NCBI GenBank assembly: GCA_028824125.1
Contig: JAPPES010000158.1
Coordinates: forward strand, 62,001 to 126,000
Length of the DNA: 64,000 nt
Direction of reading: 5' to 3'
DNA from: Candidatus Poribacteria bacterium
GTDB taxonomy: Bacteria > Poribacteria > WGA-4E > WGA-3G
Both the position numbers and the translations under genes were made by a program. The notes beneath the pieces were generated by a model. That model saw nothing but the letters and a program-made list of their open reading frames with translations, was not told the DNA's origin and ran no database searches. Positions 39,556 through 41,745 of the stretch are shown here, piece after piece. Positions within the stretch are counted from its first letter, which is position 1, and each line of letters opens with the position of its first letter.

Positions 39556-39757
39556 CTAAGACGCGTTCAACACCAATTCGGTGCGTGCATAAATATCCTG
39601 CAAGCACAATTCGTAATCAATTGAACGCAGCAGCACCACATCACTGAGTCCTTGATATTCGGTCCTTACCCATTCAGTCTTTTGACGAATATAGTGTTCA
39701 ACGCTAACCTGGCCCTGTGAAACAAGGAGGTATTCTTGTAACGAATCAAGCTGCTTT
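39556..39757 (-). pseudogene. Uma2 endonuclease gene, 3' fragment
   Basis: Read on the minus strand, the bases following the IS right end encode KQLDSLQEYLLVSQGQVSVE and then HYIRQKTEWV to a TAG at 39556-39558. SLQEYLLVSQ followed by VEHYIRQ is the typical C-terminal half of Uma2 (DUF820) restriction-like proteins. The N-terminal half is at 41329-41745. Joining the two flanks restores one frame of about 199 codons. Confidence 0.8.
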
Positions 39758-39920
39758 TGACATACTCCCCCGCTAAAGTGAGGGGATTCTTAGCTCTTAT
39801 AGTGGCAGCAATTGTTGCTGCCAAACGGCTTTTCTTGCTTCCGTCTCTCGTGCCTCCGACTGAGGTCTTACTTGGACTCCACAAGCGCTTTGTGTCTCGG
39901 TATGCCCTACCGCGACATTT
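39757..39920 (-). ncRNA. Candidate omega RNA (TnpB guide RNA scaffold)
   Basis: In IS200/IS605 elements the guide RNA scaffold overlaps the end of tnpB and the right end, and the guide is the flanking DNA. The right-end hairpin (39768-39785) and GAGTATGTCAA junction are intact here, so an RNA with a guide drawn from Uma2 sequence below 39757 is plausible. The 5' boundary is arbitrary. Confidence 0.45.
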
Positions 39921-40984
39921 CTTAGGTTTATTGCAGCGTTTATATCTCTGTCTATTGATATACCACATTGACTGCAATGATACGTTCTTTCTGAAAGTGT
40001 CAAGTCGTCTTTTTTATGCCCGCAGCTACTACAAGTCTTGCTACTTGCATAGAATTGCGATACTTCTGTGACAGGGATTCCAAGCGTTTCTGCTTTGGTC
40101 TTGAGTTTAGAGAGAAACCCACCGAACGCACTATCTGATAACGCTTTCGCCAATTTCTTATTCTTTAGCATATTAGTAACTTTTAGTGTCTCAATACCGA
40201 TAGCAGATACCTTATTGACAATATCTGTAGTTGCTTTATGGTGTGCATCGTTTCGAATACAAGCGATGCGATAGTGGATACGTGCTATTTTCCATTTCTG
40301 CTTAACCCAGTTTTTCGATCCTTGAGTGCGTTTACTGAGTCTGCGATGAGCACGTTTCAGTTTATTCTCAAAATGTTTCAGAGGACATGGATTATCATAC
40401 TTTGTGCCATCAGAACAGGTTGCTAATGTGTTTATACCCACATCAATACCAACAACAGGATACGTTGAATTATCAACGGAAACTTCGGTGTTCTCTGTGT
40501 CTATGGTGATAGATACAAACCAACGATGTGCTGTTCTACTAACAGTAACTTTCATGATCTTTCCTGACCATCGTAACTCTTGAAACATCTTGACCCATCC
40601 GATTTTTGGAAGCTTAATACGCTTCCCATCTACTTGCACAGATTGATTATTGGTTGTGAAAGAATCTTTTTTCCCACGCTTTTTAAACTTCGGAAACTTT
40701 GTACGCTTACCAACCCAATTCGCAATCGCAGCTGACAAATTCACAAAGATGCTTTTGTTTGCTACAACTTGATCTTGTCCTTCTGTCCATCCATGTTCCT
40801 TCTTAGCCACGTTAAATCTCTCATTTAATGCGGATGCAGATAGAAACTCGTTATTATCTAAATGTGCCTTGAAATCTGCTAAGGCATGATTATATGCAAA
40901 ACGGGCATAACCGCACTGCTGAGCAAACCATCCCCGTTCTTTGTTATTTGGATTCAATGCAATCTTATGGGTTCTTAAGGGCAT
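39797..40984 (-). CDS. tnpB: RNA-guided nuclease TnpB (IS200/IS605 accessory protein)
   Basis: A 395-aa TnpB starting MPLRTHKIALNPNNKERGWF; an upstream ATG at 41053 would add 23 unusual residues. The RuvC-like catalytic residues all appear intact: D181 in GIDVGIN, E265 in GIETLKVTNM and D347 in DRDINAA. A zinc finger CSSCG..CSQCG lies between the last two. TnpB cleaves DNA next to a short adjacent motif under guidance of an RNA from the element end, helping the element persist. The host uma2 gene is disrupted. An apparently intact protein without tnpA suggests a recent loss or mobilisation in trans. Confidence 0.93.
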   Translation of the reverse strand: MPLRTHKIALNPNNKERGWFAQQCGYARFAYNHALADFKAHLDNNEFLSASALNERFNVAKKEHGWTEGQDQVVANKSIFVNLSAAIANWVGKRTKFPKFKKRGKKDSFTTNNQSVQVDGKRIKLPKIGWVKMFQELRWSGKIMKVTVSRTAHRWFVSITIDTENTEVSVDNSTYPVVGIDVGINTLATCSDGTKYDNPCPLKHFENKLKRAHRRLSKRTQGSKNWVKQKWKIARIHYRIACIRNDAHHKATTDIVNKVSAIGIETLKVTNMLKNKKLAKALSDSAFGGFLSKLKTKAETLGIPVTEVSQFYASSKTCSSCGHKKDDLTLSERTYHCSQCGISIDRDINAAINLRNVAVGHTETQSACGVQVRPQSEARETEARKAVWQQQLLPL

Positions 40985-41053
40985 ATAACTGTTTCCTTGA
41001 AAGGTTTCTGTTTCCCATTGTAGTGGTGTGGTAGCTGCTACAACAACTACCAC

Positions 41054-41321
41054 AGAAACAGCCCTATGAGTATACTATATTTCAACTCAAAAGTCAAATC
41101 TTTTTGCTAAATTAACGACTTGTGCCAGTTAACTAATTGTATTTGTTATTTTCACAGATATTAGTGTTATCATATAAACATATCGTCCCTACGGGACTGA
41201 AGAGCATATCAACCAATAGGAAACACGGACAAAACGTTTCGCTTATGTGAAATAATATTTTGCATAAGGTATAAGGTTATTTAGCACAACTCGTTAAATT
41301 AACATCTGTGTCGTTCTGTAT
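41054..41321. repeat. Left part of the IS: hairpin plus 17-bp imperfect inverted repeat
   Basis: This stretch occupies the place where tnpA is expected. It has a hairpin overlapping the longer tnpB frame (TGTGGTAG..CTACCACA, about 41022-41054). An inverted repeat, 15 of 17 matching, lies at 41109-41125 and 41284-41300, enclosing AT-rich sequence with a CGTCCCTACGGGACTGAAG palindrome. No ORF is visible. It may be a decayed tnpA region or a second small element. Confidence 0.55.
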
Positions 41322-41328
41322 CCCCGAG

Positions 41329-41745
41329 CTAAAGCAACGGGGTTTTAGAACGGAACGTCTGATAAAATTCAAATTTCTCACCTCTGTCATAGACTTCCGT
41401 TGAAGGTGAAAGAACTTCTATCACAACCCTTGGATTTAGTAGTGTATCAAAGACGTTATCCTCAAACCGAGGTTCTTCACAAGCAACGACAACATCTGGA
41501 TAAAAGTATGAGTTTGTTGAATGAATGCTTACGCGCATATCACTGGAATGGACTTCACACTTATGTCCCTTCAATTGGTCACGGAGTTCTCCAAAAATAT
41601 CACCCGTGATAAAACTATGTGCACGACTTGCACCGGACATTGCAATTATTTGTCCTTTTAGGTATTCGTGTTTTGTGGTCGCTTTGCGTTCAAAAGAGAT
41701 ATATTCTTGAGGCGTAAGATAAGTCCGCGCTGCAGCAGATGACAT
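41329..41745 (-). pseudogene. Uma2 endonuclease gene, 5' fragment
   Basis: The N-terminal 133 codons of a Uma2 (DUF820) family protein, starting MSSAAARTYLTPQEYISFER. It contains the nuclease-fold motifs FYPDVVVACE and RVVIEVLSPSTEVYDRG of the PD-(D/E)xK type. It runs through KFEFYQT and then enters IS left-end sequence, ending at an IS-derived stop. The rest of the gene lies beyond the element at 39556-39757. The function of Uma2 proteins is unclear. As it stands the product lacks its C-terminal third. Confidence 0.82.

What the first reader, a model, noticed from the sequence alone, without database searches (positions are those of the whole stretch)
39556..41745. Uma2 nuclease gene split by an IS608-like TnpB element
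Both halves of one Uma2 gene flank the element, and joining the flanks keeps one reading frame, giving near-exact element borders. TnpB keeps its three RuvC-type acidic residues and zinc finger, but tnpA is absent. The guide next to the right end is Uma2 sequence (bases from 39756 downwards), so the nuclease would recognise the empty allele. A nuclease gene interrupted by a guide-RNA nuclease gene is a neat case for studying element persistence.
Basis: partly seen in the sequence, partly recalled or inferred. Interest (0 to 1): 0.65.

Follow-up and report, generated by a model that had tools for sequence, protein, structure and literature searches.

The report
TnpB-only insertion element splitting Uma2 gene
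A known type of small bacterial transposon, carrying an RNA-guided DNA-cutting enzyme but no transposase of its own, has landed cleanly inside a nuclease-family gene of a Poribacteria genome; a related genome still has the uninterrupted gene with a perfect target site, so this is a well-documented but ordinary case.

Summary
The element is window 39757-41361, minus strand (1605 bp). Joining 41362 to 39756 restores a 194-codon Uma2 gene with no base gained or lost. An intact ortholog in the same genus (G004, 96% aa) matches this join without gaps and is identical for 55/55 bases around it.

The element is an IS200/IS605-family, tnpB-only member. Its ends follow the IS608 logic: insertion 3' of TTAT, right cleavage after TCAA, and guide tetranucleotides that co-vary with the cleavage sites (21/21 right ends). 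TnpB has its catalytic motifs and is under purifying selection (dN/dS about 0.1). Suppressed synonymous change over its last ~40 codons indicates the embedded guide RNA. No copy examined carries tnpA, and none of the TnpA genes found has matching ends.

The homing reading is the published TnpB model (Karvelis 2021). The guide would match the empty allele perfectly; no other target with up to 2-3 mismatches exists in the genome. New member of a known kind; low interest.

The parts
39757..41361 (-). tnpB-only IS200/IS605-type element (1605 bp including the nested MITE; about 1418 bp without it)
   Evidence: Empty-site alignment to intact Uma2 of G004; same ends in other copies
41362..41745 (-). 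5' part of the interrupted Uma2 gene (128 codons)
   Evidence: PF05685 E 1.9e-25; junction
39556..39756 (-). 3' part of the interrupted Uma2 gene, with stop codon
41362..41365 (-). TTAT target tetranucleotide = left cleavage site / presumed TAM
   Evidence: TTAT precedes the left end in nearly all sampled copies
41322..41342 (-). left-end hairpin (IPL) CCCCGTTGCTTTAGCTCGGGG, foot 19 nt from the left cleavage site; guide tetranucleotide AAAA at 41343-41346
39767..39785 (-). right-end hairpin (IPR) CCCCTCACTTTAGCGGGGG, foot 10 nt from right cleavage site; guide tetranucleotide GAAT at 39786-39789
39757..39760 (-). right cleavage site TCAA
   Evidence: co-varies with the guide tetranucleotide in 21/21 ends
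39797..40984 (-). tnpB, start ATG at 40984 by homology (open frame extends to GTG 41053)
   Evidence: PF01385 E 3e-28, PF07282 E 6e-22; ISDra2 TnpB E about 5e-59; sibling start codons
39757..39920 (-). presumed guide-RNA (omega/reRNA) scaffold overlapping the tnpB 3' end; 5' limit approximate
   Evidence: suppressed synonymous divergence; consensus fold with compensatory changes; fold z -2.4
39737..39756 (-). presumed guide segment AAGCAGCTTGATTCGTTACA (Uma2 sequence)
   Evidence: immediately 3' of the right end; identical in the intact G004 allele
41116..41294 (.). nested MITE (179 bp) with terminal inverted repeats and a REP-like hairpin unit at 41173-41198
   Evidence: 36 copies of its 5' end in the genome; absent from sibling C24; inverted arms
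41108..41115 (.). target duplication of the nested MITE, first copy (TTAATTTA on the minus strand)
41295..41302 (.). target duplication of the nested MITE, second copy (TTAATTTA on the minus strand)

Best explanation
A tnpB-only member of the IS200/IS605 family (IS608-like ends; IS1341-type gene content) inserted 3' of a TTAT tetranucleotide in a Uma2 gene of a Candidatus Poribacteria genome, without target duplication or loss. Insertion presumably used an IS608-type TnpA supplied in trans, by base pairing of the end guide tetranucleotides with TTAT and TCAA. TnpB and the guide RNA from its 3' end would now carry a guide copied from Uma2. They would cut an empty Uma2 allele (TTAT + guide match), so that repair from an occupied copy restores the element. 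The occupied locus is not cut because TCAA instead of TTAT precedes the guide-matching DNA. A MITE also inserted, at an unknown time, between the left end and tnpB. Shown: borders, empty allele, end logic, TnpB motifs and selection, guide-RNA signature, MITE. Inferred: transcription, cleavage, trans-mobilisation.
For: Exact empty site in G004, 55/55 bases identical across the junction. Other copies in own and related genomes have the same ends at different flanks. Right-end covariation GAAT/TCAA or GAAC/TCAG in 21/21 ends; left TTAT with guide mostly ending in A, one TTAC with guide ending in G; IS608 has TTAC/AAAG and TCAA/GAAT (PMC5934647). TnpB homology to solved ISDra2 TnpB with RuvC and zinc-finger motifs aligned. 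Core dN/dS about 0.1; dS falls from about 0.8-1.5 in the core to 0.07-0.30 in the last 39 codons against the closest copies. No second target with up to 2-3 mismatches in the genome.
Against: No tnpA in the element, and no TnpA found with matching ends in the 18 genomes of the genus, so how it moved is unknown. No RNA or activity data. The RE hairpin of this copy alone folds no better than shuffles (z -0.19).
Confidence: 0.9

Rival explanations
1. The element is inert: TnpB and its guide RNA are no longer expressed or active at this locus (for example because of the MITE upstream of tnpB), and the locus is simply a disrupted gene carrying a relic.
For: The MITE sits between left end and tnpB and is absent from the sibling C24; no tnpA; several other copies in the genus are truncated or deleted.
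Against: tnpB is intact with motifs conserved, closely related copies show purifying selection, and the flanks have not decayed (joined Uma2 ORF has no stop), so any inactivation would be recent.
Confidence: 0.25
2. Domestication: the TnpB and guide RNA act as an RNA-guided regulator or defence factor for the host instead of serving the transposon.
For: Such reuse (TldR) is known for other TnpB relatives; tnpA is absent.
Against: Catalytic residues intact, mobile-type ends intact, guide matches only its own insertion site, scattered copies with different flanks.
Confidence: 0.03
3. Assembly artefact: the interruption is a chimeric join of two contigs.
For: The genome is a draft of 162 contigs.
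Against: Both borders fall exactly at predicted cleavage positions and rejoin to the ortholog's sequence to the base; an artefact would not do that.
Confidence: 0.01

Closest known systems
IS608 (Helicobacter pylori, IS200/IS605 family)
   Same: Subterminal hairpins with guide tetranucleotides 5' of each foot; right cleavage site TCAA with guide GAAT identical; insertion 3' of a tetranucleotide, no duplication (PMC5934647)
   Different: No tnpA; target TTAT with left guide AAAA instead of TTAC with AAAG; nested MITE
ISDra2 TnpB (Deinococcus radiodurans)
   Same: TnpB homolog over residues 31-401 (E about 6e-59), RuvC D-E-D and CCCC zinc finger motifs, guide RNA from the right end; proposed homing role (PMC8612924)
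   Different: TAM would be TTAT, not TTGAT; ISDra2 carries tnpA; activity here untested
tnpB-only IS200/IS605 elements (IS1341 group; name from general knowledge)
   Same: tnpB with IS200/IS605-type ends and no tnpA
   Different: No relevant difference found apart from the nested MITE

Membership tests
IS200/IS605 family (IS608 type ends) | Subterminal hairpins at both ends with cleavage about 19 nt 5' (left) and 10 nt 3' (right) of the hairpin feet | tested here: met
   19 and 10 nt in the window copy; left distance 18-20 nt in siblings; IS608 distances from general knowledge
IS200/IS605 family (IS608 type ends) | Insertion 3' of a fixed tetranucleotide, no target duplication | tested here: met
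   Exact empty site; TTAT left of most copies
IS200/IS605 family (IS608 type ends) | Guide tetranucleotides pair with the cleavage sites | tested here: met
   21/21 covariation at the right end; TTAT/A versus TTAC/G at the left (one TTAC copy)
IS200/IS605 family (IS608 type ends) | Y1 HUH transposase TnpA in the element (IS608 group proper) | tested here: not met
   No Y1 ORF in the element or within about 1.5 kb of related copies; so filed as tnpB-only, not as the IS608 group proper
TnpB / OMEGA RNA-guided nuclease | OrfB_IS605 and TNB domains, RuvC D-E-D, CCCC zinc finger | tested here: met
   residues per PMC10097598
TnpB / OMEGA RNA-guided nuclease | Guide RNA from the right end, guide taken from the flank | tested here: inconclusive
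   Sequence signature only: suppressed synonymous change and conserved fold; no RNA data; no Rfam match
TnpB / OMEGA RNA-guided nuclease | TAM-dependent cleavage of the empty site | not testable with these tools
   Needs a cleavage assay
MITE (nested, 41116-41294) | Short, terminal inverted repeats, fixed-length target duplication, many copies, no gene | tested here: met

The most novel reading that the evidence does not exclude
This tnpB-only lineage persists in Poribacteria mainly by guide-RNA homing into empty alleles through recombination between strains, with rare or no help from a transposase. The single-contig genome G009 has 15 left ends of this type but no IS608-type TnpA was found in it, and tnpB is still under purifying selection.
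Probability: 0.12. Interest if true: 0.5.

Novelty: new member of a known kind. Interest (0 to 1): 0.2.

Why it matters
It is a clean natural pair of occupied and empty alleles for a TnpB element, with exact borders, a predicted TAM (TTAT) and a guide that matches the empty allele perfectly. It also documents a Poribacteria family of tnpB-only elements whose end guides co-vary as the IS608 model predicts. It adds an example, not a new principle.

Tried and rejected
Recurrent insertion into Uma2: a Uma2 profile found no other sampled element with Uma2 flanks. Off-target sites in Uma2 paralogs: none with up to 2 or 3 mismatches. A cognate TnpA in the genome: of three Y1 genes, only C60 is IS608-type and the end-motif scans found no such end beside it; the other two are 96% alike, and the C153 gene lies among REP-like units. 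tnpA-tnpB elements in G008 and (decayed) G004 have different TnpB and ends. Rfam gave nothing useful. A literature search for Uma2 in Poribacteria found nothing.

Full report
Observation. The window lies in a 5.59-Mb, 162-contig genome whose named relatives are all Candidatus Poribacteria. On the minus strand a Uma2 gene starts at 41745 and breaks off inside the domain; its missing end lies at 39556-39756. Many left borders would keep the frame when joined to 39756, so the frame alone does not fix the border. Relatives do. The intact Uma2 of G004 (96% amino acid identity) aligns gap-free to the join 41362|39756 and is identical over all 55 compared bases around it: GAATTTTAT|AAGCAGCTTGATTCGTTACAAG. 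G017 and G003 carry intact, prmC-syntenic alleles too. The insertion neither duplicated nor removed bases.

Ends. The left cleavage point is 19 nt 5' of the hairpin CCCCGTTGCTTTAGCTCGGGG, the right one 10 nt 3' of CCCCTCACTTTAGCGGGGG. These are the IS608 distances (general knowledge). A sibling at C24 (81% TnpB identity) has the same ends in other flanking DNA. Across the genus, left ends of this type are preceded by TTAT in nearly all copies. At the right end the guide tetranucleotide co-varies with the cleavage site: a guide ending in AAT with TCAA in nine ends, GAAC with TCAG in twelve. At the left end one copy with TTAC has a guide ending in G, whereas TTAT copies mostly have one ending in A. 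IS608 itself has TTAC/AAAG and TCAA/GAAT (PMC5934647).

TnpB. Pfam finds OrfB_IS605, TNB and HTH domains. The protein aligns with the solved ISDra2 TnpB (E about 6e-59), including GIDVGIN, IGIETL and DRDINAA at the RuvC positions and the CXXC...CXXC finger; the reference residues are in PMC10097598. Against the closest sibling copies the core has dN/dS of about 0.1. In the last 39 codons dS drops to 0.07-0.30, against about 0.8-1.5 in the core, and codon change among identical residues falls from about 0.4 to 0.1-0.2 from about codon 357. That is what an overlapping conserved RNA would cause. The region folds better than shuffles (z -2.4) and its consensus structure has 13 pairs with compensatory change. 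The RNA was not observed.

Target. The predicted guide AAGCAGCTTGATTCGTTACA matches the G004 empty allele 20/20 behind TTTTAT. G017 differs at positions 15 and 18 only, and G003 at 6 and 18. In ISDra2 about 12 TAM-proximal positions matter. In the own genome nothing else matches TTAT plus guide within 3 mismatches over 24 bases or 2 over 18. At the occupied site TCAA, not TTAT, precedes the guide match, so self-cutting is not expected. Re-cutting of the empty allele and restoration by repair is the published model (PMC8612924); gene-drive behaviour was reported for plasmids (PMC11870625).

tnpA. No Y1 gene lies in or near any related tnpB copy examined. The genome has three Y1 genes; only C60 is IS608-type, and no end of this type was found beside it. 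G009, a single-contig assembly with 15 left ends, has no IS608-type TnpA among its two Y1 matches. Short derivatives with both ends and no intact tnpB occur (L115, L131, L132). Trans-mobilisation is therefore inferred, and its source is unknown.

Nested MITE. Positions 41116-41294 are a 179-bp repeat with inverted ends, flanked by an exact 8-bp duplication TTAATTTA. Its 5' end occurs 36 times in the genome with at most one mismatch (0 in the reversed control); every copy in which both ends were recognised has an 8-bp duplication with at most one mismatch (some loci are counted twice there). Sibling C24 lacks it. The leader between left end and tnpB is thus largely a separate insertion; its effect on tnpB expression, and whether it came before or after the element entered Uma2, are unknown.

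Verdict. The observation and main interpretation are right, the borders are now exact, and the case is an ordinary tnpB-only IS200/IS605 insertion: a new member of a known kind.

Noticed in passing
window 41108-41302: A 179-bp MITE with 8-bp target duplication nested in the TnpB element; dozens of copies genome-wide; no autonomous partner identified.
   Followed up: partly
L072 1520-2330 (G000:C153): A Y1 transposase gene (resembling the REP-associated type) bracketed by the same GTCCCGTAGGGAC hairpin units found inside the MITEs, suggesting a Poribacteria REP system carried within MITEs.
   Followed up: partly
L115, L131, L132: Short elements with the same left and right ends but no intact tnpB, i.e. 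non-autonomous derivatives of the family.
   Followed up: no
L103, L105, L109, L125, L114: Left ends of the same type precede quite different TnpB lineages, suggesting exchange of tnpB between end sets.
   Followed up: no
L073 710-2245 (G004:C7): Two tandem Uma2 genes at the orthologous site in G004, one in the window genome; the window genome holds 28 Uma2 matches.
   Followed up: no
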